From Verrucomicrobiia bacterium (GTDB taxonomy: Bacteria; Verrucomicrobiota; Verrucomicrobiia; Opitutales; Cerasicoccaceae), in the NCBI GenBank assembly GCA_030425485.1, contig JAUIAM010000006.1, positions 62,001-126,000 of the forward strand: a stretch of DNA of 64,000 nucleotides. The letters are read 5' to 3'. The position numbers were made by a program, and so were the translations under genes. The notes under the pieces were generated by a model. That model did not search any database and was not told where the DNA came from. It saw nothing but the letters and a program-made list of their open reading frames with translations. Within the stretch, counting starts at the first letter, position 1. Every line of letters starts with the position of its first letter. Below are positions 34,221 through 64,000 of the stretch, one piece after another.

Positions 34221-34325
34221 ATTTAAGCGTTGATGTATGCGTATGCAGAAGATAGGTCTGTATCCCTACATCGCATAGCTAAATGGTTTAGCTATGTGGC
34301 AATCATAACATCAAATATCAAAAAA

Positions 34326-35039
34326 ATGCCTATCAAGTATCAACTCGTTGAGAATAAGCTGACTACGGACCCCAATGACTACTTTGCGTTGGTTAAACCG
34401 ATTGAGTCCTTGGATCTCGCAGCCATATCACAGCGTATGGTCGATGCCGGGTCTACGGTGACTGAAGCTGATATTGCTGCCGTATTTACGGATTTTGTGA
34501 AACAGTTGAAAATCGCCATCTCAGAGGGCTATCGCGTCAATATCGGTGATGTGGCCAACCTCTATCCCAGTATCTCTGGTGTATTCCATGGTGCGGATGA
34601 CGGCTACGATCCTGCACGTCATACGATACAGCTCAATGCTAACCCGTCTACCGGCATCATCTCCTACCTCCGTGAACACGCGCATGCGGTGAAAGAGCAG
34701 GCGGTCAAACCCTTACCCGTGCTCTTAGGCTATGTTGACCTAGGAACAGGAGAGACCAATACCCTCATTACGTCTAATAATATCGGCACGATAAACGGGA
34801 GTCGCCTTAAATATAACCCTGAGGAAGCGGATGAAGGCGTATACCTTATCCCCATAGACGGTACGCCTGAACAGAAAGTAGAAACAGTTCAGAAAAACAA
34901 GCCCAGCCAACTGGTATTTTTGACGCCTGAGTTGACGCAGGAACTGTACTACCTTGAGGTCCGAACTCGTGTGTCAGGTGGTAAAGACTTGCGGGTTGGA
35001 CGCCTAGATAAGCCCTTGCAGGTTACACCAACCCCATAA
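34326..35039 (+). CDS. HU/IHF-like DNA-binding protein with C-terminal Ig-like domain
   Basis: 237 residues from ATG 34326 (MPIKYQLVENKLT; an earlier in-frame ATG at 34230 adds a hydrophobic piece unlike the family). N-terminal half resembles the divergent HU-like domain of DUF4469-type proteins (ISQRMVDAGSTVTEADIAAVFTDF, VNIGDVANLYPSISG, HTIQLNANPSTGI). The C-terminal half about 130-237 looks like the beta-sandwich module (KPSQLVFLTPELTQELYYLEV RTRV). Such proteins are best known from Bacteroidetes. Lower GC than the flanking ancestral genes. Function in a glycan locus unclear, possibly nucleoid or phase regulation. Confidence 0.7.
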   Translation: MPIKYQLVENKLTTDPNDYFALVKPIESLDLAAISQRMVDAGSTVTEADIAAVFTDFVKQLKIAISEGYRVNIGDVANLYPSISGVFHGADDGYDPARHTIQLNANPSTGIISYLREHAHAVKEQAVKPLPVLLGYVDLGTGETNTLITSNNIGTINGSRLKYNPEEADEGVYLIPIDGTPEQKVETVQKNKPSQLVFLTPELTQELYYLEVRTRVSGGKDLRVGRLDKPLQVTPTP

Positions 35040-49691: not shown

Positions 49692-52151
49692 TTGAATCCT
49701 CTTAGACGCATACTCCTTCTGATTGGCTGCATTCTGGTCCTGTGGCCTTCGGTAGCCTTTGGCCTGCAGCGGCATTTTAGTAAGGAGGGCGTACAGTCGC
49801 GCAAGACGGCGACCCGCCTGTTTAACGAGCATGAAGTGCTCGGGCCGATTTTCTATCCCCGTAGCGCTGGCGAGCAAGATCCCGAGTACCTGGCTGCGCT
49901 GGAGCTGGCGGAGGTGCTGGCCCAGGTATCCGGTCAGGAGTGGGAGGTGTTACCCGAGGAAGGGACGGGCGCGAAGCCGGGGGTCTACGTTGGCCACACG
50001 GTGCGATACTTTATCGAGAGCGGGCAGACGCTGCGCGCCTCCCGGGATGCGCTCTCTCGCCAGCCGCGCGACCCGGACCAGTACTTTCTCTTTGTCGATG
50101 ACGAGTGCGTCATCATCGGAGGGAACACCCGTGCGGCTACGGTGCGGGCGGTCTCGCGCTTTCTGATGGAGCAGGCCGATGTGTGGTGGTTTATCCCCGG
50201 GCCGCTGGGCGTGAGCATCCCCGCGCGCGAGGAGATGTATGTCGCCGCGCAAAGCACCTGGCAGGTGCCGGACTTTGCCTCGCGCTGGCTGCGGGTGCGC
50301 GATGTGGCCTGGAATCGCCACAACATGCTCGACCGTTGGATACCTTCGCAGCACGGGTTGTTTAAGCTGCTGGATGAGGAGGCGCTGAGCGAGCACCCTG
50401 AGTGGATGCCTCTTGTCAATGGAATGCGTGAGTTGAACAGGTCCGGGGGAACGTTTGCCCATCAGCCAGAAATTGCCGATCCGCAGTTGGCCGCCTTCAT
50501 CGCCCGGCGGGTAGATGAGAAATTTTTGAGTGATCTCGCCGAGCCGAGCGTATCGATCGGTATGAACGACACGCTCATCTACAGCGAGTCCGAGCTCTCC
50601 CGGGCGGCACTGCTGCCGTGGAGTTACTACCGTGGGCTCCCGAATACGAGCGAGCTGGTGTTTGCCTTTAGCAATGCAGTGGCGCAGCAGAGTTTCGGCC
50701 TGAAGCACAGCTACCCGGTGCCGCGTTATGTTTCGCAGTTGGCGTACTACATGCACCTGGAGGTGCCGTCCTTTAAAGTCGATCCGGGGGTGGCGGTGTA
50801 TGTTGCCACGGACCGGGGGCAGTGGTACGACCCTGAGCGTGATGCCGAGGGCAAGGCGCTGCTTGATGACTGGGCTGAAACGGCACAAGGCCCATGGGGG
50901 CTACGGGACTATTACTACGGACATCCCTACCTGATCCCGCGCATCTACACCGGGCTTATGGCTGAGTCGATCGCCTATGGTCACAGTGCCGGGGCGAGCC
51001 TCTTTATGGCTGAGAGCAACCCGCAGTGGGGCTACGATGGCCCGAAAATCTGGCTCGTCACGCAGTTGGCGCAGAACAGCCGGGGCGATGCGGATGCGCT
51101 GCTGGAGGAATATTATGCGCGCTTCTATGGGCCAGCGGCAGGGCCAATGTCAGACTTTTTTGCCCTCTGTGAAAAGCAGTGGATGGAGCAGCCAGGCAAG
51201 GCCAAGTGGATCAAATATTTTCTCAATCCGGCCCAGCTTGCGCTCTTTTCGCCTGAGGTGTGCGAGCAGCTTGATGTTTACCTGAAGGAGGCCGAGCGTC
51301 GTGCTAGAGTGGATACACGTGAGCCGTGGGCAGATCGGGTTGCGTTGACGCGGGAGTGCTTTGACCAAACGCGTGCCGCAAGCGTGTTTTATCATGCATG
51401 GCTCACGATGGCGAAAAATCCTCTCGCTACAGAAGAGGACCGTGAACGCTTCCTTGCTGCGTGGCCGGAGTACGAACAGGCACGCTCGAATGTGTTGGAC
51501 CACATGCCCAAGAAATTGCCCACATGGTTGAAGATGATGTGGAATACCCTGATCGCGCTGGACCCGCGCCCCCGGTTGGAGGCCGGTGCGTGGCGTGGTG
51601 TGACGCAGGCCCGTGCGCGCTTCGACCAGTCCACGGAGGGCGAGTTGACCTGCGGGGAGAGTCTTTCGCGTGACTGGGCTTTGCCGGGCGGCTGGTCGGT
51701 AAGCGCGACCAATGGGGAGGGCTTTAGCTGGCAAATCCTGCAAGTCGATGGCGACGAAAGCGTCATGCGGGTCGAAGGGGCCAATAGTTTTTCGCTGAAC
51801 CGCCTCCTCCCGGTCAGGGCGGGGGAGGGCCTCGGCGTGCGCGTCAAGCTGCGGGGCGCGCTGAGTCCTGGTTGTCAGGTCTATCTGCTGGTTAGCTGGT
51901 GGGATGCTGAGGGTGAAAAAATCGAACGCTTTGAGCGTGCAGCGCTGCCCGAGGGTGACTTTACTGAGTGGATGTCCATCGTCGTAAACACTCGGGTGCC
52001 AAAGGGAGCGCAGGAGGCTTACCTTTCCTTAAAGGTGCGGGCTCAATTCCCGGGTGACTGGCTGGAGGTTGACGATGTGCTGGCCATGGGCTTGGCTGAG
52101 GCCAGCATGCGCATGGGGTCACAGCGGCCGGCGGAAAGGAGCCAACCGTGA
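49692..52151 (+). CDS. Secreted DUF4838-family glycanase-like protein
   Basis: 819 residues with apparent TTG start at 49692 heading a signal peptide (RRILLLIGCILVLWPSVAFG); no in-frame ATG is nearby. The N-terminal part about 60-165 resembles the alpha-glucuronidase-type N-terminal domain (YLAALELAEVLAQVSGQEW, IIGGNTRAATVRAVSRFL). The core about 180-640 is the DUF4838 TIM-barrel-like region (WNRHNMLDRWIPSQH, WGYDGPKIWLVTQLAQN). The end about 680-800 looks like a jelly-roll carbohydrate-binding module (DWLEVDDVLAMG). Probably acts on the locus polysaccharide or a related uronate glycan in the periplasm or outside. Catalytic residues not assigned. Confidence 0.75.
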   Translation: MNPLRRILLLIGCILVLWPSVAFGLQRHFSKEGVQSRKTATRLFNEHEVLGPIFYPRSAGEQDPEYLAALELAEVLAQVSGQEWEVLPEEGTGAKPGVYVGHTVRYFIESGQTLRASRDALSRQPRDPDQYFLFVDDECVIIGGNTRAATVRAVSRFLMEQADVWWFIPGPLGVSIPAREEMYVAAQSTWQVPDFASRWLRVRDVAWNRHNMLDRWIPSQHGLFKLLDEEALSEHPEWMPLVNGMRELNRSGGTFAHQPEIADPQLAAFIARRVDEKFLSDLAEPSVSIGMNDTLIYSESELSRAALLPWSYYRGLPNTSELVFAFSNAVAQQSFGLKHSYPVPRYVSQLAYYMHLEVPSFKVDPGVAVYVATDRGQWYDPERDAEGKALLDDWAETAQGPWGLRDYYYGHPYLIPRIYTGLMAESIAYGHSAGASLFMAESNPQWGYDGPKIWLVTQLAQNSRGDADALLEEYYARFYGPAAGPMSDFFALCEKQWMEQPGKAKWIKYFLNPAQLALFSPEVCEQLDVYLKEAERRARVDTREPWADRVALTRECFDQTRAASVFYHAWLTMAKNPLATEEDRERFLAAWPEYEQARSNVLDHMPKKLPTWLKMMWNTLIALDPRPRLEAGAWRGVTQARARFDQSTEGELTCGESLSRDWALPGGWSVSATNGEGFSWQILQVDGDESVMRVEGANSFSLNRLLPVRAGEGLGVRVKLRGALSPGCQVYLLVSWWDAEGEKIERFERAALPEGDFTEWMSIVVNTRVPKGAQEAYLSLKVRAQFPGDWLEVDDVLAMGLAEASMRMGSQRPAERSQP

Positions 52152-53426: not shown

Positions 53427-54035
53427 ATGGGTAAGCGGGCATTTGATTTTTTGATTTCCCTTTCGGCTTTGCTGCTGCTTTCACCGGTGCTGATGCTGTT
53501 GTACGCGATCTCACTTATAAAGCTCGGACGCCCCGTTTTTTTTCGCCAGCCCCGCCCCGGTCTGCATGGCCGTGTATTTCACATCCTGAAATTTCGCACT
53601 ATGACAAACACTCGTGGTGCCGACGGCGAACTGCTGCCCGATGCTGAGCGCATGACGGCCTACGGGAACTTTTTGCGTTCGGCCAGTTTGGACGAATTGC
53701 CGGAACTGCTCAATGTCTTGCGGGGCGAGATGAGCCTTGTCGGGCCAAGGCCACTGCTGGTGCGCTATCTGGAGCGTTACTCACCAGAGCAGGCGCGTCG
53801 CCACGAAGTGCGGCCAGGCATCACGGGTTGGGCGCAGGTCAACGGCCGCAACGCGCTAAGCTGGGAGGATCGCTTTGCGCTGGACGTCTGGTATGTAGAT
53901 AACCGGAGCTTTTGGCTCGACCTGAAAATAATCTTCATGACGCTGGGTGCAGTGCTGCTGCGCAAGGGCATTTCTGCCGAAGGCGAAGCCACCATGCCGG
54001 AATTTCTCGGCAGCAAAGGAAAACCTAATGAGTGA
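53427..54035 (+). CDS. pglC: PglC-like initiating phosphoglycosyltransferase
   Basis: Monotopic transferase that loads the first phosphosugar on undecaprenyl phosphate. 202 residues, the minimal form without the four-helix N-terminal extension of WcaJ. One re-entrant hydrophobic helix (FLISLSALLLLSPVLMLLY), FRQPRPGLHGRVFHILKFRTM, the catalytic Asp-Glu dyad in ASLDELPELLNVLRGEMSLVGPRPL and RPGITGWAQVNGRN. Ends with GTGA-type overlap into pglD (8 bases), as in bacillosamine clusters. Confidence 0.92.
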   Translation: MGKRAFDFLISLSALLLLSPVLMLLYAISLIKLGRPVFFRQPRPGLHGRVFHILKFRTMTNTRGADGELLPDAERMTAYGNFLRSASLDELPELLNVLRGEMSLVGPRPLLVRYLERYSPEQARRHEVRPGITGWAQVNGRNALSWEDRFALDVWYVDNRSFWLDLKIIFMTLGAVLLRKGISAEGEATMPEFLGSKGKPNE

Positions 54036-54672
54036 ACCGGAAACATTTGTCATCGTCGGCGCGGGCGGCCAAGGGGCCGAAGCGCTATGGGTTGCGCGGG
54101 CCAGTGGGCGCGGCGGCTTTCTCGGCTTTCTCGACAGTAAGTCGGAGCTAAAAGGAAGTGAGGTGCTCGGGGCAACGGTACTGGGCTCTGAAGACGACTT
54201 TATACGCGGCCAATGCGCGGGCGTAGGCTTTCACTGTGCGATCGGCAACAACGCTATCCGCCGTGAAGTTTCCGAAAAACTGGAGGCTTCCGGCATGGTT
54301 CCGGTCACACTGATTCATCCGCACGCCACTGTGGCGGCAGAGGCGCAGGTAGGGGCCGGGACGTATATCGGCGCGGGTGCGATTGTCTCTATTCGCGCGG
54401 AAGTCGGGCGACATGTTTTAATCAATCTGAATGCTAACGTCGGGCACGACGCCGTGCTGGGGGACTACGCCCAGCTCTGCCCCGGGGCCTGTGTGAACGG
54501 CTATTGCCGGGTTGGCCGTGAGGCGTTCCTCGGGTCCAATGCCGTGATCGAGCCGGGGAAGGTCGTGGGTGATAACGCCACGCTGGCCGCCTGCTCGTTT
54601 GCCGTCAGTGATATAGAGCCGGGCCACACGGCGATGGGCGTACCGGCACGAACTATTTTTCGCAAGCGATGA
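54028..54672 (+). CDS. pglD: PglD/NeuD-like sugar N/O-acetyltransferase
   Basis: 214 residues from ATG 54028, which has an AGGA box; an in-frame ATG at 53947 lies within pglC. N-terminal Rossmann-like half (FVIVGAGGQGAEALWVARA), then left-handed beta-helix hexapeptide repeats from about 100 (VGAGTYIGAGAIVSIRAEVG, NVGHDAVLGDYAQLCPGA with the catalytic His, MGVPARTIF). In the bacillosamine pathway this acetylates the 4-amino sugar made by PglE; a PglE-like gene lies at 61090. Confidence 0.9.
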   Translation: MSEPETFVIVGAGGQGAEALWVARASGRGGFLGFLDSKSELKGSEVLGATVLGSEDDFIRGQCAGVGFHCAIGNNAIRREVSEKLEASGMVPVTLIHPHATVAAEAQVGAGTYIGAGAIVSIRAEVGRHVLINLNANVGHDAVLGDYAQLCPGACVNGYCRVGREAFLGSNAVIEPGKVVGDNATLAACSFAVSDIEPGHTAMGVPARTIFRKR

Positions 54673-54908
54673 TCGAAGAAGAAATTAAGCAACTGGTGAT
54701 TGCCCAGCTCAATATCGAGCCGGAGCAGTACTCCGAAGACCTTATGGCGGGCGACATCCCGGAGTGGGATTCGCTGGCTCACGTCAACCTGCTCATGGCA
54801 GTGGAGAAGCGCTTCAACATCGTGTTTGATGTGGGGGATGCGATCGACATCGAGTCGGCGGGTGACCTGATCGACGCGGTCAAGGGCAGCACGCAGCCTC
54901 CGTCCTAA
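54669..54908 (+). CDS. Acyl carrier protein
   Basis: 79 residues, acidic, overlapping pglD by four bases (ATGA). Phosphopantetheine site IPEWDSLAHVNLL with Ser35, followed by helix LMAVEKRFNIVFDVGDAI. It is a standalone, pathway-specific carrier rather than the fatty-acid AcpP, and heads a set with an AMP-forming ligase and an acyl reductase. Likely carries the acyl group reduced by the LuxE-LuxC fusion at 57510. Confidence 0.92.
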   Translation: MIEEEIKQLVIAQLNIEPEQYSEDLMAGDIPEWDSLAHVNLLMAVEKRFNIVFDVGDAIDIESAGDLIDAVKGSTQPPS

Positions 54909-54964
54909 CGCAGTATTGGGCTGCAGTCGCTCCATGATTTTGACAACACTTTTGCGCTGATATC

Positions 54965-56365
54965 ATGCAACTGCTCACGGACATACTTCCGGCCCAGGCC
55001 GCTATCCGCCCCGAGGCGGAGGCGGTGTGCGACCCGAACGAGTCGCTGAGCTATGCTGCGCTGCTGGAGCGGGTAAACGCCGTGGCATTTGGTCTGCACG
55101 GTGCGGGCGTTGAGCCCGGCGATCGCGTGGCCATCGTCATGCCCAACAGCGTGGACTTTATCGTGGCGCACTTCGGGGTGCTGGCCGCGGGCGCGGTCAG
55201 CGTGCCATGTGAACCCGGAGTAAGCGATGCTACCCTCGCCTCGATTGTGGCCAGTTGCTCGCCAAAGCTTGTCCTGCGGAACAGTGATGATGTATTCAAA
55301 AAATGGATACAAGTAGGGGGGTGCGAAGCGCCGAAGGTGGAGCGTTCGCCGACGGACCTGGCCGCGCTGATGTACACCACAGGCACGACGGGCACACCCA
55401 AGGGAGTGATGCTGACCCATGCCAATGTGCTGGCAGCGCTGCGGAATATCTGCGCGTTTATTGGCTATACCGAGGCGGATCGTGAGGTCGTTGTGTTGCC
55501 CCTGTCGCATAACTTCGGCCTGGGGCATGTGTATTGCAACCTGATGAGTGGCGGCGCGGTTTACACCGAGCCGGGTTTGACGCGTGTCGGGCGCGTGTTG
55601 CGCAAGATACGCGACTGGGGCGCGACGGGATTTCCGGGCACGCCCCTGGGCTGCGTCATGCTCATGGATCGCTATGGTGAAGTTTTTAGAGAACGCTGTG
55701 CGGGGCTCCGCTTTATGGTGGTGAACTCCGCACCACTGCCGCCGAAGCGAGCTAAGCAACTGCGGGAGATGTTGCCCGATCTCGACCTGATGGTCTACTA
55801 CGGGCTGACGGAGGCCTCGCGCTCGAGCTTCATATCGCTCACGCGCGAGGGGCCGGAGTGCTACGATTCCGTTGGTCCGGCGATGGATGGGGTTTGTATC
55901 GAAATTTCTGATACAGGTGAGGTGCTTGTCTCGGGTCCAACGGTTACCTTCGGCTATTGGGGTGAGCCTGAGCGCACAGCCGAAGTGATCCGTAATGGAA
56001 AGCTGCACACGGGAGACTTGGGTGAGCTGGATGCGCGTGGCTACCTGCGTATCACCGGTCGCATCAAGGACGTGGTCAACGTCGGTGGCTACAAAGTTGT
56101 GCCGGAAGAGGTGGAGCGTGTGCTCTTGACCCATGCGAGCGTGGCCGATGCTGGGGTGGCGGGGGTTGATCGGGTGGAGGCTTTTGTTGTGCTGGCTGAT
56201 GGAGCGGAGTTTGACGAAGCGGAACTTTCGCGCCATTGTTTTGCCCAATTAGAGAACTACAAGGTGCCGACCCGCTACCACTGCGTGGAGGCCATCCCCC
56301 GTACGGACACGGGTAAACCGCGCCGTGCGGCCCTGCTAAAGCCCAGCGAAGACAGCTCATGTTAA
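54965..56365 (+). CDS. AMP-forming acyl-acid ligase
   Basis: ANL-superfamily enzyme, 466 residues, probably loading an acid onto the neighbouring carrier protein (or CoA) with ATP. MYTTGTTGTPKGVMLTHANVL is the P-loop; PLSHNFGLGHVY, YYGLTEASRSSFI, HTGDLGELDARGYL, TGRIKDVVNVGGYKV (hinge) and the final Lys in DTGKPRRAALL are all intact. Overlaps the next gene by seven bases, so coupled. The acyl group cannot be told from sequence. Confidence 0.9.
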   Translation: MQLLTDILPAQAAIRPEAEAVCDPNESLSYAALLERVNAVAFGLHGAGVEPGDRVAIVMPNSVDFIVAHFGVLAAGAVSVPCEPGVSDATLASIVASCSPKLVLRNSDDVFKKWIQVGGCEAPKVERSPTDLAALMYTTGTTGTPKGVMLTHANVLAALRNICAFIGYTEADREVVVLPLSHNFGLGHVYCNLMSGGAVYTEPGLTRVGRVLRKIRDWGATGFPGTPLGCVMLMDRYGEVFRERCAGLRFMVVNSAPLPPKRAKQLREMLPDLDLMVYYGLTEASRSSFISLTREGPECYDSVGPAMDGVCIEISDTGEVLVSGPTVTFGYWGEPERTAEVIRNGKLHTGDLGELDARGYLRITGRIKDVVNVGGYKVVPEEVERVLLTHASVADAGVAGVDRVEAFVVLADGAEFDEAELSRHCFAQLENYKVPTRYHCVEAIPRTDTGKPRRAALLKPSEDSSC

Positions 56366-57513
56366 ATTTACGTCTGCCCCTGCCACGACTGCTCAGTGCC
56401 GGAGAAGTGCTCTCCGGGGCGGGGAGTCTGGGCGCGCTCAAGGCGCTGGACGCGGCTCGTCTGGCTGTGCTGCTGTCGCCCACGCTGGCCGCAGACGAGG
56501 AGCAAATGGCCTATGTGAAGAAGTCGCTCCGGGCCGAGGTGATGACCTTTATCCCCATGCCGGGCGGTGAGCCGACGCTGGAAAAACTCCAGCCCGTATT
56601 GGCGGAGTTGACCCCATTTCGCCCGGACTGGATTGTGGCCATTGGCGGGGGATCTGTTATTGACGGGGCGAAGTTGGCCTGGGTTTTTCTGGAGCACCCG
56701 GATGCGGATCTGGAGAGGATATGCCGTCCGTTCGGCTTGCCAGGGCTGCGTGGTGTGGCTCGCTTTGCAGCGGTGCCGACGACGGCGGGCACGGGCTCGG
56801 AGGTGAGCTCATCGGCTTTGTTTTTGGACGAGGAGACGCGGGCCAAGCGAGCGATTGTTTCCCACGAGCTCTTGCCTGACGTGGCTGTGCTCGACCCGAA
56901 GCTGACGCTGGCTGTGCCACCACAGGCTGTTGCCGCGGCTGGTATGGACGCGCTGGCTCATGCTCTCGAGGGCTATGTTTCCAGGTTTTCACACCCGCTG
57001 GCTGATATGCAGGCGGAGAAGGCGATCGCTGTGCTGCTGGATAAGCTGGCGGCGACCTGGCGTCAGCCTGAAGATACCGACACGCGCCTGGCCGTGATGC
57101 ATGCGGCCATGCTGGCCGGGTGGGTGCAGAACTTAAAGGTCCCGGGTATGGGGCACGCGATCGCGCACCAGATGGGGGCGTATGGCATCGGGCATGGTTT
57201 GGCCGCCGGGGCATTTCTCATTCCCGCCATGCGTCACAACTCCGAGATGCCCCAGGTTCAGGCGCGTTACGCAAAACTGGCCGAGGAACTGAAGCTGCGC
57301 GACGACCTGGAGCTGATCGATACCGTCATGCAGCTCAAGGCCGAGATCGGATTGGCTGATGCTTTGTCTAAGCTGGCCGGGGTTGACCGCAAGCAGGTGC
57401 TGGCGGAGGCAGAGGCCATTTCCGCCGGGGCACTGGAGGATATTTGCGCGAAGGCTAACCCGACAGCTTTCGGGCCGGAGGTCGTTCACCGGGTGCTGAA
57501 GGAGGTGCTATGA
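56359..57513 (+). CDS. Iron-containing alcohol dehydrogenase
   Basis: 384 residues of the Fe-ADH family: AIGGGSVIDGAKLAW (NAD binding), PTTAGTGSEVSSSALF, LPDVAVLDPKLT, GMDALAHALEGYVS (metal His) and GMGHAIAHQMGAYGIGHGLAAG (metal His). Likely reduces an aldehyde to an alcohol, here the aldehyde from the LuxC domain of the next gene, which overlaps by four bases (ATGA). Confidence 0.9.
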   Translation: MLNLRLPLPRLLSAGEVLSGAGSLGALKALDAARLAVLLSPTLAADEEQMAYVKKSLRAEVMTFIPMPGGEPTLEKLQPVLAELTPFRPDWIVAIGGGSVIDGAKLAWVFLEHPDADLERICRPFGLPGLRGVARFAAVPTTAGTGSEVSSSALFLDEETRAKRAIVSHELLPDVAVLDPKLTLAVPPQAVAAAGMDALAHALEGYVSRFSHPLADMQAEKAIAVLLDKLAATWRQPEDTDTRLAVMHAAMLAGWVQNLKVPGMGHAIAHQMGAYGIGHGLAAGAFLIPAMRHNSEMPQVQARYAKLAEELKLRDDLELIDTVMQLKAEIGLADALSKLAGVDRKQVLAEAEAISAGALEDICAKANPTAFGPEVVHRVLKEVL

Positions 57514-60032
57514 GCGCGGAAGAATCCATCGACGCCTTGCTCAAGCTGCCTGTGTTCGGGACGCCCGCAACGCAGCGTGAGAAGCAGTTTTTAGCTGCCA
57601 TGCAGGCTGCGCTTACGCATCACCTGGAGGCATGCCCTGCTTTTGCCCGCTATGCAGTGGGGCGGGGTACTGATGCGGGTAAAATGCCTATGCGTCTTGA
57701 GGACTTTCCCTACCTGCCGGTGCAGGCTTTTAAGGAAAATGCCGAGCTGCTGCGTTCGGTGGCCGAGAGCGAGGTGCGCTCGGTTCTGAAGAGTTCGGCC
57801 ACCCGTGGCGTGCCCAGCGTGGTGGCGGTGGACAAGGTTACGGCGAAGCGCCAGGTGCGAGCCCTGGCTGCTGTGCTGGAGGCGGTGTTCGGCGGCAAGC
57901 GGCGGCCGTTTATCGTGCTCGATGTGGACCCACAGGGCGCAGATCGTGCGGCGATGGGCGCACGCAACGCCGCGGTGCGGGGCTTTCTAAACCTGGCCAG
58001 TGAAGTGCGCTACGTGATGAAGGCCGACGCGAGCGGTGCGCTGGTGTTGGATGAAGGCTTGCTGGCTGAGGCCCTCGCGGCGGTCTCTGAGTCCGCTGAG
58101 CCAGCGGTCATTTTTGGTTTTACCTACGTGCTCTATGCGCACGTGGTCGAGCCGCTGCTGGCCTCAGGTGGTCAGGTGGTGCTACCAGCGGGGTCGTTTG
58201 TGGCCCACATCGGGGGCTGGAAAAAGTTGGCCGACCGCGCAGTCGATTCGGCGAAATTCGGCGCGGATGTCAGCCGGGCCTTTGGAGTGGACGCAGCCCG
58301 AATCGTAGATTTTTACGGGTTTACCGAGCAAATGGGCATCACCTACCCGGATGCACCCGGCGGCGACAAGTGCTGCCCGGTTTTTGCCGAAGTCATCGTG
58401 CGCGACCCGGTGACGCACGCGCCCCTGCCTGATGGTGAGGAGGGCTTGCTGGAGTTTCTGACTCCGTTGCCGCACTCCTACCCGGGGATTGCCGTGTTGA
58501 CCGATGACATGGGCGTTGTGACCGGACGCGGGGAAGCTGACGGCTGGAGCGGTACGCGCTTTCGCGTGACCGGGCGGGCCAAGCGGGCCGAGGCGCGCGG
58601 CTGCGGTGACATCATGGGGGAAAAAGTGGCCCGACCTGCGAGTCTTGCGGCGCGGGTGATGCGTCCGGCAGGCCCGGGGGAGGCGCGACTGCTTTTTTCC
58701 GGCGAGGCCAACCACGTAGCTGGGCCGTGGCAGGCTCCGGTCGAGCTGGCAGACTTACCCAAGGTGGACAATTTATCGGCATTGGCGGGGCAGCTGCGTG
58801 AGGCGCGGGCCCGGCTGGATGCGTACTCGGTGGACGAGCTGGGGGCTTTGATTGGCGCGGCAGCTGCACGCTGGGGCGCGCCGGGATCGCCGCTGGCTGC
58901 GCTACGCCAGCAGGGCCTGCAGTTTCTGACTTCGTGGTGCCGCTCGGATGCGCTCCGGCGGACGGCAGACAACGCGCTGCATGGCGCACGGGGACATTTG
59001 GACGGGTTTCGTCCGGTGGGCGGAAGTGCACGGACAATGCTTCTGGCGCGCCCGCGCGGGTTGGTCTGCCATTGGCTTTCGGGAAATGTGCCGCTGCTGG
59101 CCATGCTGACGCTGGCCCAGTCGATCCTGAGCCGTAACGCGAATTTACTCAAAGCAGCGAGCCAGTTCACGCGTACGCTGCCCCTACTGCTGGATGCTTT
59201 CCGCGGGCTGGAGGTGAAGACTCCGGCCGGGCGCGTGCTGCGGGGTGACGACGTGCTGGCCAGCATCGCCGTGGTGTATTTTAGCCGTGATGACGAGGCC
59301 TCGGCGCTGGCCATGTCGAGCGAGGCGGATGTGCGCCTGGCCTGGGGTGGTCGCGAGGCGATGGAAAGCATTTTGGCGCTGCCGCGAACGCTGGGCTGTG
59401 AAGACATCCTGTTTGGGCCCAAGCTGTCCATGATGGTGGTGGGGCGTGAGGCATTGGCCGAGGGCCGGGCCCGGCAAAAGCTCGTCCGCGGTGCGGCCAC
59501 GGACGCATCGGTCTTTGACCAGTACGCCTGCGCTTCGCCGCACACGATTTTCGTCGAGCGTGGTGGCGAGTGGAGCCCGGAGGCCTTCGCGGAACAACTC
59601 GCGCTTGAAATGGAAAAGGCGCTGGCCCGTATCCCCAAAGAGCCGGAAGACCCGGCTGCCGCAGCCCAGATCAAGGCCCTGCGCCTGCGGGCGGAGCTGG
59701 TCGGGCGCGTGTGGCACTCCGACGACGGCGCGTGGACGGTGATTTATGATGAAACCAGCGGCGGGCTGGCCCCGCCCTCGTATTCGCGCACGATTACGGT
59801 AAAACCCGTCGAGGACGCCTTTGCCGTGCTGCCGCTGGTCAGCGCGGACATCCAGACGGTCGGCTTGGCCCTGAGCGGGGAGCGGCGGCTGGAGTTTGCC
59901 CGTCAGGCGGCTCTGCGCGGTGCGGAGCGATTTCCCGACGTGGGGCGCATGACCTTCTTCGATTCGCCCTGGGACGGCCTCTTTCCGATGGAGCGCATGG
60001 TCAAGTGGGTCACCCTTGGCGGCCCGGTCTAG
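57510..60032 (+). CDS. LuxE acyl-protein synthetase fused to LuxC acyl-CoA reductase
   Basis: 840 residues. The N-terminal domain about 1-370 is LuxE-like (FPYLPVQAFKENAEL, KSSATRGVPSVVAVDK, DFYGFTEQMGITYP) and ends with AEARGCGDIMGEK, whose Cys365 falls where LuxE has its acyl-acceptor Cys. The C-terminal domain about 430-840 is LuxC-like (CHWLSGNVPLLAMLTLAQSI, LKAASQFTRTLP, DQYACASPHTIFVE with catalytic Cys674). In lux systems the two proteins form a complex that turns fatty acid into aldehyde; here they are one chain, with ACP, a ligase and Fe-ADH just upstream. LuxA/LuxB are absent, so bioluminescence is unlikely. The product probably decorates or anchors a glycan (inference). Confidence 0.88.
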   Translation: MSAEESIDALLKLPVFGTPATQREKQFLAAMQAALTHHLEACPAFARYAVGRGTDAGKMPMRLEDFPYLPVQAFKENAELLRSVAESEVRSVLKSSATRGVPSVVAVDKVTAKRQVRALAAVLEAVFGGKRRPFIVLDVDPQGADRAAMGARNAAVRGFLNLASEVRYVMKADASGALVLDEGLLAEALAAVSESAEPAVIFGFTYVLYAHVVEPLLASGGQVVLPAGSFVAHIGGWKKLADRAVDSAKFGADVSRAFGVDAARIVDFYGFTEQMGITYPDAPGGDKCCPVFAEVIVRDPVTHAPLPDGEEGLLEFLTPLPHSYPGIAVLTDDMGVVTGRGEADGWSGTRFRVTGRAKRAEARGCGDIMGEKVARPASLAARVMRPAGPGEARLLFSGEANHVAGPWQAPVELADLPKVDNLSALAGQLREARARLDAYSVDELGALIGAAAARWGAPGSPLAALRQQGLQFLTSWCRSDALRRTADNALHGARGHLDGFRPVGGSARTMLLARPRGLVCHWLSGNVPLLAMLTLAQSILSRNANLLKAASQFTRTLPLLLDAFRGLEVKTPAGRVLRGDDVLASIAVVYFSRDDEASALAMSSEADVRLAWGGREAMESILALPRTLGCEDILFGPKLSMMVVGREALAEGRARQKLVRGAATDASVFDQYACASPHTIFVERGGEWSPEAFAEQLALEMEKALARIPKEPEDPAAAAQIKALRLRAELVGRVWHSDDGAWTVIYDETSGGLAPPSYSRTITVKPVEDAFAVLPLVSADIQTVGLALSGERRLEFARQAALRGAERFPDVGRMTFFDSPWDGLFPMERMVKWVTLGGPV

Positions 60033-60292: not shown

Positions 60293-61006
60293 CTAGGAGC
60301 TGCTGGCCTGATTCTGGGCGATGTCCTCTGCGGTGGGGGCGGCGAGAGTGAGGGCGGTCAGCTCGGAGAGGAGCTGGCGCATGCCGGGGTCGGTCTTAAA
60401 GATGTCGTAGAAGGGCTTGTTGCTGGAGAGGCGGACGAAGAACTGCTCCTGCATTTGGTCGAGGCCGTAGGTGAAGACGGTCTTGATCGGGTCGAGGCGG
60501 TCGAACTGACCGGCCTTGACGCGGTTGACGTAGAGTGTGTCGCCGACGGTGTGCCAGTAGTAGACGTGCTTGATATCGCCCGAGCCGGGCATTCTAAAAG
60601 AGCGGAATTCGGCAGGGTGGAGCGGGGTGCCCTCGCTGGTCAACTGCACGGAAAATTCCTTGTCCTTGAGTTCGGCGCCGTTGCGGACCCAGCAGACATC
60701 GGGCGTGTGGGACTGGACTTCGCGCACGGGCATTTGTTTGGGCTTCCAGTAGCCGACGTAGACATCGACCTCGCGGTCACCCTGACGGTAGACGCGGTGG
60801 ATGGCTTCCTCGTAGTTGAGGATCTCGCCCTCGTAGTCGGTAAACTCGAGCTCCTCGCTCTCCCAGCCGGGCAGGTCAGCGGAAATGGCCGTATCCAGCG
60901 AAGCGGCGAAGTGCTGTTCGGGGTTGTAGAAAATCTCCTGGCGAACGAAGACGCCGAAGAGGCCCAGGCAGATCAGGGAGGCAAAGGTGAGGAGGGCAAT
61001 TTTCAT
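60293..61006 (-). CDS. epsI: Exosortase-associated EpsI protein (DUF3485)
   Basis: 237 residues; N-terminal membrane anchor or signal (LLTFASLICLGLFGVFV). The key block SHTPDVCWVRNGAEL matches the EpsI His-Cys motif (usually SHxPExCxxxxGW), and the surrounding VDVYVGYWKPKQ fits too. EpsI accompanies exosortase, sometimes fused to it, in PEP-CTERM and exopolysaccharide systems. No exosortase gene is in the window. Opposite in direction to the big cluster. Confidence 0.87.
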   Translation of the reverse strand: MKIALLTFASLICLGLFGVFVRQEIFYNPEQHFAASLDTAISADLPGWESEELEFTDYEGEILNYEEAIHRVYRQGDREVDVYVGYWKPKQMPVREVQSHTPDVCWVRNGAELKDKEFSVQLTSEGTPLHPAEFRSFRMPGSGDIKHVYYWHTVGDTLYVNRVKAGQFDRLDPIKTVFTYGLDQMQEQFFVRLSSNKPFYDIFKTDPGMRQLLSELTALTLAAPTAEDIAQNQASSS

Positions 61007-61089: not shown

Positions 61090-62220
61090 ATGTCCTCCGA
61101 GCGTATCTATCTCTCTCCGCCCGCCATGTCGGCTGCCGATTTGTCCGCGTTGACGGAGGCTTTCCAAAGCAATTGGATTGCTCCGGTGGGCCCTGCGCTG
61201 GATGCTTTTGAGGCCGAAATCTGCCGCCGGACGGGGGCTCGGCACGCGGTGGGACTTTCCTCGGGGACGGCTGCGCTGCACCTGGCTCTGCTTGAGGTGG
61301 GGGTAAAGCCCGGCGACACCGTTTTTTGCTCCACGCTGAGCTTTGCCGCCTCGGCCAACGCCATCTGCTACTGCGGCGCGAAGCCGGTCTTTATCGATTC
61401 GGAGCGTGAGAGCTGGAATATGGACCCGGCGGTGCTGGAGCAGGCTCTGCGGGCTGCTGCCGAGCGCGGGAAGCTGCCCGCTGCGGTGGAGGTCGTGCAG
61501 GCCTATGGACAGTGCGCGGATATGGAGGCGATCGAAGCCCTTTGCGCGCAGTACGGGGTGCCTTTGGTCGAGGATGCAGCCGAGGCGCTGGGGGCCAGCT
61601 ACCGGGGGCGCTCAGCTGGGACTTTCGGTGCGGCGGGTGTCTTTTCTTTTAATGGCAACAAGCTCATTACGACCTCGGGCGGGGGCATGCTGGTTACGGA
61701 GGACTCCGAACTGGCGCGGCGGGTGCGTTACCTCTCAACTCAGGCGCGGGAACCGGGCCGGGAGTACGTGCACCACGAAGTCGGCTACAACTACCGCTTG
61801 AGTAATCTGCTGGCCGCGGTGGGGCACTCCCAGCTTCTACAGCTGGATGAGAAGATTGCCCGTCGGCGTGAGATTTTTGCTGGTTATGTTGAGGCATTGA
61901 GCGACCTGCCCGGGGTGAGTTTTATGCCTGAGGCGGCGCATGGGATGTGTACGCGCTGGCTTACGTCACTGCTTGTTGACAAAGATAAATCCGGTGTGGA
62001 TCGCGATGCGGTGCTCGATGCCCTGGAGGCGGACAACATCGAGGCGCGTCCGCTCTGGCGCCCGCTGCACACGCAACCATGCTTCGCCGACTGCGAAGTA
62101 TTCAGCACGGGGGTGGCCGACGCGCTTTTTGCCCAGGGGGTGAGCCTGCCCAGTTCGGGTAACTTGACCGAGGCGCAGCAGGCGCGGGTCGTGGCCGCGA
62201 TTCGAGGGGTTTTTCGCTAG
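61090..62220 (+). CDS. pglE: PglE-like DegT/DnrJ/EryC1 aminotransferase
   Basis: PLP enzyme transferring an amino group from glutamate to a UDP-4-keto-sugar. 376 residues: YLSPPAMSAADLSALTEAF, GLSSGTAALHLAL, STLSFAASANAICY, LVEDAAEALGASY, and the PLP lysine in FSFNGNKLITTSGGGMLV (Lys191), a match to PglE-type enzymes. Divergent from epsI by 83 bases. Its TAG stop is part of the CTAG target of the miniature element that follows. Confidence 0.88.
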   Translation: MSSERIYLSPPAMSAADLSALTEAFQSNWIAPVGPALDAFEAEICRRTGARHAVGLSSGTAALHLALLEVGVKPGDTVFCSTLSFAASANAICYCGAKPVFIDSERESWNMDPAVLEQALRAAAERGKLPAAVEVVQAYGQCADMEAIEALCAQYGVPLVEDAAEALGASYRGRSAGTFGAAGVFSFNGNKLITTSGGGMLVTEDSELARRVRYLSTQAREPGREYVHHEVGYNYRLSNLLAAVGHSQLLQLDEKIARRREIFAGYVEALSDLPGVSFMPEAAHGMCTRWLTSLLVDKDKSGVDRDAVLDALEADNIEARPLWRPLHTQPCFADCEVFSTGVADALFAQGVSLPSSGNLTEAQQARVVAAIRGVFR

Positions 62221-63680: not shown

Positions 63681-64000
63681 ATGGTCAAACAAACAAACCG
63701 AGAAGGGCTGATCTATGCCGCACTGATGATGTTCCTGTGTGTGGCGGGTTTATACTTCGCCTATGAAATTCGGTGGGAATTTAAGCTGGAAGAGCACGCA
63801 CAGAAGCAGCGCTTCGAGGTCATGCTCTGGCTGATTCCACTTGAGATCGTTGTTCTCTATGCCTTCGGCCAATTTCAGGTAGCTGCCGCGCGTTTTCGCG
63901 GTTATGATTTTTTTCAACTGGCCTCTGCCCTCGGGCTGACCACCGTTTTCCTCTTTTACCTCTGGTATGTTTTTGGCGGCCGGGACTGCCCTTCGCGCGG
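63681..64000 (+). CDS. N-terminus of a probable PglF/CapD-type membrane dehydratase, cut by window edge
   Basis: About 106 codons from ATG 63681 (MVKQTNREGLIYAALMM), open to the edge. Three hydrophobic segments are visible: about 10-26, 48-63 (LWLIPLEIVVLYAFGQ) and 82-99 (LGLTTVFLFYLWYVFGG). The LIPLEIVVLYAFGQFQ block resembles the second helix of the four-helix anchor of PglF/CapD/WbpM 4,6-dehydratases. A UDP-GlcNAc 4,6-dehydratase would supply PglE and PglD. The catalytic part is outside the window, so this call is tentative. Confidence 0.5.
   Translation, partial: MVKQTNREGLIYAALMMFLCVAGLYFAYEIRWEFKLEEHAQKQRFEVMLWLIPLEIVVLYAFGQFQVAAARFRGYDFFQLASALGLTTVFLFYLWYVFGGRDCPSR

What the first reader, a model, noticed from the sequence alone, without database searches (positions are those of the whole stretch)
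54669..60032. Dedicated acyl-reduction module (ACP, AMP-ligase, Fe-ADH, LuxE-LuxC fusion) downstream of pglC-pglD
Four genes, the last three overlapping by 4-7 bases, encode a complete chain to activate an acid, hold it on a private carrier protein, and reduce it to aldehyde and alcohol. LuxE and LuxC, normally separate subunits, are one 840-residue chain with both acceptor cysteines (Cys365, Cys674) in family-expected places. No luciferase genes are present, and the module follows directly on the gene for a sugar acetyltransferase in a polysaccharide locus. It may make a lipid alcohol or aldehyde that anchors or modifies the glycan, a system I cannot match to a described pathway.
Basis: partly seen in the sequence, partly recalled or inferred. 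Interest (0 to 1): 0.75.

Follow-up and report, generated by a model that had tools for sequence, protein, structure and literature searches.

The report
Tetronate-type sugar acylation gene cassette
These genes most likely make a small hydroxy acid and attach it to an amino sugar of the cell-surface polysaccharide, using the same kind of gene set already described in Vibrio cholerae O1, so the finding looks like a new example of a known kind rather than a new pathway.

Summary
The four genes are real and placed as described: ACP, AMP-ligase, iron alcohol dehydrogenase and one 840-residue LuxE-LuxC protein. Both cysteines stand in 21 of 21 full fusions compared. The unmatched lipid-anchor reading does not hold. 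Content, order and fused reductase match the published tetronate set of Vibrio cholerae O1 (VC0248-VC0252). Of 21 full fusions, 12 (window, 7 verrucomicrobial, 4 Vibrio-like) have this order. In two genus mates pglD and these four genes are missing between pglC and epsI, while degT and pglF remain, so pglD goes with the module. Best reading: fusion and dehydrogenase reduce one carboxyl of a small diacid; ligase and ACP activate the other; the PglD-like enzyme N-acylates a 4-amino sugar. The acyl group is unproven (2,4-dihydroxybutanoyl by analogy). No named V. cholerae sequence could be compared, and two of 14 loci, the window's closest relative among them, show no glycan genes. Verdict: new member of a known kind, modest interest; the pairing with a bacillosamine-type sugar is the less expected part.

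The parts
53427..54035 (+). pglC-like phosphoglycosyl transferase (PF02397), the presumed first step of the repeat unit; neighbour, also kept in the two genus mates that lack the module
54022..54672 (+). PglD/NeuD/VioB-type hexapeptide acyltransferase, the proposed N-acyltransferase of the module
   Evidence: TIGR03570, 189.1 bits against cut-off 160.8; VioB, PglD, perosamine N-acetyltransferase; absent together with the four genes in two genus mates
54669..54908 (+). acyl carrier protein, Ser35 (RfbK-like position)
54965..56365 (+). AMP-forming acyl ligase, 466 aa (RfbL/WbeL/VC0249-like)
   Evidence: WbeL is 471 aa
56359..57513 (+). iron-containing alcohol dehydrogenase (VC0250-like)
57510..60032 (+). 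LuxE-LuxC fusion: acyl-protein synthetase plus acyl reductase (RfbN/VC0251-like), Cys365 and Cys674
60293..61006 (-). EpsI-like DUF3485 protein, conserved neighbour; not thought part of the module
61090..62220 (+). LegC-type DegT aminotransferase, the proposed maker of the 4-amino sugar
   Evidence: (TIGR04181 381.5 bits, below cut-off 420)
63681..64000 (+). start of a PglF-type nucleotide-sugar 4,6-dehydratase (618 aa) that runs past the window end

Best explanation
A five-gene acylation cassette (pglD, ACP, ligase, Fe-ADH, LuxE-LuxC) of the V. cholerae O1 tetronate type. LuxE adenylates one carboxyl of a small diacid and passes it by its cysteine to LuxC, which reduces it to an aldehyde; Fe-ADH reduces that to an alcohol. 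The product is an omega-hydroxy acid: 2,4-dihydroxybutanoate from malate if the analogy holds, 4-hydroxybutanoate from succinate if not. The ligase then adenylates the remaining carboxyl and loads it on the ACP. The PglD-like enzyme transfers the acyl group to the 4-amino group of a UDP-4-amino-4,6-dideoxy-sugar made by the PglF-type dehydratase and the LegC-type aminotransferase, and PglC starts the repeat unit with it. Shown here: the genes, their conserved residues, their conserved order, and the joint absence of pglD with the four genes in two relatives. Inferred: every reaction step, the substrate and the acceptor.
For: [quoted passage not shown] VC0248-VC0252 is the tetronate group, and tetronate acylates the amino groups of perosamine. 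RfbL activates 2,4-dihydroxybutanoate for CoA or carrier RfbK. A LuxE domain lies in RfbN. WbeL has 471 aa against 466 here. Of 21 full fusions compared, 12 have the order ACP-ligase-FeADH-fusion, the window included. In two genus mates pglD and the four genes are both absent between pglC and epsI while degT and pglF stay. The Vibrio-like loci place the set beside NeuC, NeuB, LegC and NeuD genes. Another locus has DegT, FdtA and a hexapeptide enzyme. The best solved relatives of the window PglD include VioB, PglD and perosamine N-acetyltransferase. Two separate carboxyl activators in one module fit a diacid better than a fatty acid (inference).
Against: No V. cholerae O1 sequence was available, so kinship to VC0248-VC0252 rests on published names and order and on unnamed Vibrio-like genomes. 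The Vibrio-like sets lie in nonulosonic-acid loci, not perosamine loci. Against them the ligase is only 28-30% identical, while fusion and ADH are 44-46% and 40-42%, so substrates may differ. Two of 14 loci show no glycan gene among the neighbours scanned: L003, whose fusion is the closest to the window's (62%), lies among a sigma factor, MacB- and T2SS-type genes (10 of 14 neighbours scanned), and L005 beside cytochrome bd genes (8 of 13 scanned). Fe-ADH scored below the cut-off of all 15 NCBIfam matches and the ligase below all 25 shown of 108, so substrate is not shown. The best solved relatives of PglD are acetyltransferases. Genus mates keep DegT, PglF and PglC without this PglD, so their amino sugar is made or acylated some other way.
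Confidence: 0.7

Rival explanations
1. Fatty-acyl reductase module: LuxE-LuxC and Fe-ADH turn a fatty acid into a fatty aldehyde or alcohol that anchors or decorates the glycan.
For: LuxE and LuxC of luminous bacteria act on long-chain fatty acids (recalled); the only solved relatives by sequence are the two chains of 7xc6, titled P. phosphoreum fatty acid reductase complex. A paper on Aeromonas flagellin islands with split luxE and luxC suggests a liposugar component.
Against: The fusion scores far below the LuxC and LuxE equivalog cut-offs (80.6 against 750 and 65.9 against 550 bits). LuxE already activates the acid, which leaves ligase and ACP unexplained. I saw no lipid-transfer gene at the module among those scanned; amino-sugar acylation genes are there.
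Confidence: 0.12
2. Same cassette logic, but the product is an unrelated short acyl group (such as 3-hydroxybutanoyl or glyceroyl) or the acceptor is another sugar, for example one made by the UDP-sugar dehydrogenase at 52148.
For: The ligase differs strongly from the Vibrio-like ones. The acceptor-sugar genes next to the cassette differ between loci.
Against: Fusion and Fe-ADH stay better conserved, which points to the same reduction chemistry.
Confidence: 0.13
3. A stand-alone acid-to-alcohol reducing pathway unrelated to the glycan, placed in this locus by chance.
For: In L003, the nearest relative, and L005 no glycan gene was found among the neighbours scanned.
Against: Twelve of 14 loci have amino-sugar or acyltransferase genes nearby; pglD is absent together with the four genes in two mates.
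Confidence: 0.05

Closest known systems
Vibrio cholerae O1 tetronate genes rfbK-rfbO / wbe, VC0248-VC0252 (Morona 1995, known here only as a cited reference)
   Same: Ligase, Fe-ADH, single LuxE/LuxC-type protein and acetyltransferase in one run, with a carrier RfbK; the ligase is of nearly equal size; the set lies in a surface-polysaccharide locus and serves an amino sugar.
   Different: The acyltransferase is upstream here (PglD type) and downstream there; the sugar here is probably of the bacillosamine type, not perosamine; phylum Verrucomicrobiota.
Aeromonas polar flagella glycosylation island group II (PMC7874193) and enterobacterial flagellin islands (PMC4875605)
   Same: ACP, AMP-ligase, LuxE and LuxC in a glycan locus; in Aeromonas next to pse genes.
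   Different: LuxE and LuxC are listed as separate genes, and a 3-oxoacyl-ACP reductase (FabG type) is listed where Fe-ADH stands here.
LuxC-LuxE fatty acid reductase complex of luminous bacteria (PDB 7xc6)
   Same: Both domains match; the acceptor cysteines are in the family-expected places (positions recalled).
   Different: Separate chains, fatty acid substrate.
Campylobacter PglF-PglE-PglD-PglC bacillosamine path (recalled)
   Same: Dehydratase, aminotransferase, hexapeptide acyltransferase and phosphoglycosyl transferase types are all present here.
   Different: The acyltransferase is coupled with a dedicated hydroxyacyl-ACP supply instead of plain acetyl-CoA (inference).

Membership tests
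V. cholerae O1-type tetronate set (VC0248-VC0252) | Carrier, ligase, Fe-ADH and LuxE/LuxC protein in that order on one strand | tested here: met
   Names published for VC0249-VC0252, VC0248 included in the set, carrier RfbK named; that VC0248 is RfbK is recalled
V. cholerae O1-type tetronate set (VC0248-VC0252) | LuxE and LuxC in one polypeptide | tested here: met
   VC0251 named with both activities, LuxE domain in RfbN
V. cholerae O1-type tetronate set (VC0248-VC0252) | Sugar acyltransferase gene in the run | tested here: met
   pglD at 54022-54672 overlaps the ACP gene by 4 bases and is absent together with the module in two mates
V. cholerae O1-type tetronate set (VC0248-VC0252) | Sequence kinship with VC0248-VC0252 themselves | not testable with these tools
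   No named V. cholerae record was found; relatives in 4 of 227 Vibrio-like genomes at 45-47%
V. cholerae O1-type tetronate set (VC0248-VC0252) | Product tetronate, bound to perosamine | not testable with these tools
   Product needs chemistry. The neighbours are LegC- and PglF-type genes, so perosamine is unlikely
Bioluminescence fatty acid reductase (luxCDE) | LuxC and LuxE equivalog scores | tested here: not met
   80.6 against 750 and 65.9 against 550 bits
Bioluminescence fatty acid reductase (luxCDE) | LuxD thioesterase and luciferase genes alongside | tested here: not met
   Not among the 28 window genes scanned with Pfam; the rest of the genome was not tested
Aeromonas FGI group II set | Separate luxE and luxC with a 3-oxoacyl-ACP reductase | tested here: not met
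Exosortase A-associated acyl ligase (TIGR03098) | Curated score cut-off | tested here: not met
   236.6 against 592.35 bits

The most novel reading that the evidence does not exclude
A transferable 'hydroxyacyl cassette' that different phyla plug into different amino-sugar pathways (bacillosamine-type in Verrucomicrobiota, nonulosonic acids in Vibrio-like genomes, FdtA-type amino sugars in another locus, perosamine in V. cholerae O1), with the PglD-type enzyme changed from acetyl-CoA to an ACP-bound hydroxyacyl donor. The window would then make an amino sugar, such as 4-N-(2,4-dihydroxybutanoyl)-bacillosamine, that I have not seen reported in the passages I read.
Probability: 0.45. Interest if true: 0.5.

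Novelty: new member of a known kind. Interest (0 to 1): 0.3.

Why it matters
The tetronate route of V. cholerae O1 is called putative or predicted in the passages I read. Relatives outside that pathogen with the whole cassette in one run, and near relatives without it, make the route testable elsewhere. They also suggest that such N-acyl decorations can be predicted from genomes. And it warns that a LuxE-LuxC pair in a glycan locus need not mean lipid or light chemistry.

Tried and rejected
Lipid-anchor reading: weighed and put among the rivals. Exosortase A-linked ligase: below cut-off. Direct comparison with V. cholerae: I looked for Vibrio genomes with RF00195, which I had recalled as Qrr; it is RsmY, so one search was wasted. 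LuxQ-periplasm PF09308 served instead (checked; 15 of 398 genomes match), and the genus of G460 held the full fusion in 4 of 227 genomes; none could be named. Plasmids: 66 of 72,556 records match, all under 60% identity, 3 of them with one place over at least 80% of the query. Structure model of the fusion: mean pLDDT 68, pTM 0.56, with both cysteine regions under 50. It supports fold only (top Foldseek matches PaaK-type ligases, 7xc6 chain A at rank 29; that the first fit the LuxE half is inferred, the ranges are not shown) and says nothing of the substrate pocket. Base composition of the cassette genes (GC 0.57-0.66) is not set apart from the neighbours (0.57-0.63), so a recent foreign origin is not shown. 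Paper searches for hydroxybutanoyl N-acyl groups gave no passage of use. A search on the set with Verrucomicrobia or exosortase terms listed 20 of 129 papers, none on such a cassette in Verrucomicrobia by title. Morona 1995 is not held.

They are not glycan genes, so I lowered the best explanation from 0.72 to 0.70 and raised the chance-placement rival from 0.03 to 0.05.

Not counted twice: L015 is the same place as L004, L141 and L142 are taken to be L006 and L007 (all from coordinates), L016 lies in L080, L044 in L010, and L001, L014, L086 and L092 are the window itself.
Full report
Observation. Their Pfam families are PP-binding, AMP-binding, Fe-ADH and LuxE plus LuxC on one chain of 840 residues. 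Cys365 and Cys674 stand in 21 of 21 full-length fusions, ACP Ser35 in 13 of 13, and Fe-ADH D197, H201, H266 and H279 in 17 of 17 sequences over 340 residues (three shorter ones were left out). Ligase Lys451 stands in at least 95% of 22 ligases. By sequence the only solved relatives of the fusion at E 0.001 are the two chains of the P. phosphoreum LuxC-LuxE complex 7xc6. A moderate model (mean pLDDT 68) resembles PaaK-type adenylating enzymes and, at rank 29, LuxC. In the genome the fusion is the one strong LuxC match; a second scores 23.3 bits, just over the cut-off, over part of the model.

Spread. One scan of genome contigs gave 11 loci: 9 with a fused reductase over nearly its whole length, one cut by its contig end (L012), one with LuxE and LuxC as two neighbouring genes (L013). 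In 387 genomes of the phylum, 19 have any match and 3, the window's own included, a full fusion. In the family it is 5 of 10: own genus 1 of 4, a second genus 4 of 4 (Cerasicoccus, inferred from the titles and shared coordinates), two other genera 0 of 2. In 398 Pseudomonadota genomes 32 match, of which 7 have the full fusion. In the genus of G460, taken as Vibrio from its LuxQ domain (inference), 21 of 227 match and 4 have the full fusion at 45-47%; the other 17 match with one or both halves at separate places.

Order. Of the 21 full fusions compared, 12 have ACP, ligase, Fe-ADH and fusion in this order on one strand: the window, L003, L004, L006, L007, L008, L009, L080 and the four Vibrio-like L135-L138. 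Two more show ligase, Fe-ADH and fusion: L005 begins at the ligase, and L010 has about 300 bases before its ligase with no ACP match. L011 has carrier, ligase and fusion but no Fe-ADH match. The remaining six, L074-L079, form a separate branch: four show Fe-ADH, fusion, ligase with no ACP seen, and two are near contig ends or lack these neighbours.

Link to the sugar. Of 14 loci (the 12 plus L005 and L010), 12 hold a DegT aminotransferase or a hexapeptide acyltransferase in the stretch held. L003 and L005 do not: L003 lies among a MazE/PemK-like pair and TonB-plug, sigma-factor, TauE, MacB, T2SS-F and response-regulator genes (10 of 14 neighbours scanned), L005 beside an acyltransferase-3, a beta-lactamase-fold and cytochrome bd genes (8 of 13 scanned). 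L003 is the closest relative of the window's fusion, so this counts against a strict tie to glycan loci, though the acyl group could serve a sugar made elsewhere. PglD sits next to the ACP gene in the window, L004, L006, L007, L080 and L009; the first five are one family, so these are two independent cases. The Vibrio-like sets follow NeuC-, NeuB-, LegC- and NeuD-type genes (families scanned in L135 and L137, the others by similarity). L008 has DegT, FdtA and a hexapeptide enzyme. No background rate was computed.

Natural comparison. In two genus mates, G128 and G225, the order is pglC, a methyladenine glycosylase gene, epsI reversed, degT, wecA reversed, then a PF02719 dehydratase of 617 and 620 residues. 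DegT is 72% identical to the window's. No PglD or module lies there; the nearest PglD-like genes of those genomes are elsewhere, at 36% and 30%. So pglD and the four genes were gained or lost together. The third mate lacks the fusion, but its locus was not read. The window's own pglF-type gene starts at 63681 and runs past the end.

Known counterpart. Passages in PMC3441752 state that VC0248-VC0252 are the tetronate genes, that tetronate acylates the amino groups of perosamine, that WbeL has 471 residues and that its in-frame deletion abolishes O1 antigen. [quoted passage not shown] A passage in PMC4772473 mentions the LuxE domain of RfbN. Of Morona 1995, the source of the pathway, I saw only the citation. 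That VC0248 is RfbK is recalled. Passages of PMC7874193 and PMC4875605 describe flagellin islands with separate luxE and luxC; the first suggests a liposugar there, which is a result for the rival reading.

Mechanism. LuxE makes its own acyl-AMP and holds the acyl on its cysteine, and LuxC reduces it (recalled biochemistry). The extra ligase and ACP therefore speak for a second carboxyl group: one end reduced to the alcohol, the other activated for transfer. This predicts an omega-hydroxy acyl amide on the sugar. The named Fe-ADH models nearest by score (AdhE, ErcA, lactaldehyde reductase, 4-hydroxybutyrate dehydrogenase) are all below cut-off and do not settle the substrate. The ligase is only 28-30% identical to the Vibrio-like ones, against 44-46% for the fusion, so the acyl group may not be the same. 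The solved relatives of PglD are acetyltransferases for the most part, so use of an ACP-bound donor is a prediction, not a finding.

Verdict. The cassette belongs, by content and order, with the tetronate set of V. cholerae O1; direct sequence kinship and product are untested. Its pairing with a bacillosamine-type pathway in Verrucomicrobiota is the less expected part.

Noticed in passing
L074, L076, L077, L078 (Pseudomonadota): A second fusion type: Fe-ADH, LuxE-LuxC fusion, AMP-ligase, after a gene of the response-regulator cluster (scanned in L076), beside a TPR-GT41 glycosyltransferase in L076 and a GDP-mannose 4,6-dehydratase in L078; no ACP gene seen. It forms its own branch.
   Followed up: partly
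L082, L083, L139, L140: Separate luxE-like and luxC-like genes with ACP-like and ligase genes, reminiscent of the Aeromonas flagellin islands.
   Followed up: no
60293-61006: EpsI-like DUF3485 protein, held between the cassette and degT in four family loci and before degT in both genus mates read.
   Followed up: no
49692-52151: DUF4838 protein of 819 aa with relatives upstream of pglC in L004, L006, L007, L080 and one genus mate.
   Followed up: no
L104, L105 (genus mates): A methyladenine glycosylase gene (PF03352) lies where the cassette is in the window.
   Followed up: partly
L003:5011-14669: The closest relative of the cassette stands beside a MazE/PemK-like gene pair and outside any glycan locus seen, which may mean it moves as a unit.
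   Followed up: partly
34230-35039: Protein with HU-type DNA-binding and DUF4469 domains upstream of the polysaccharide locus, near EPSP-synthase/MurA- and MurB-type genes.
   Followed up: no
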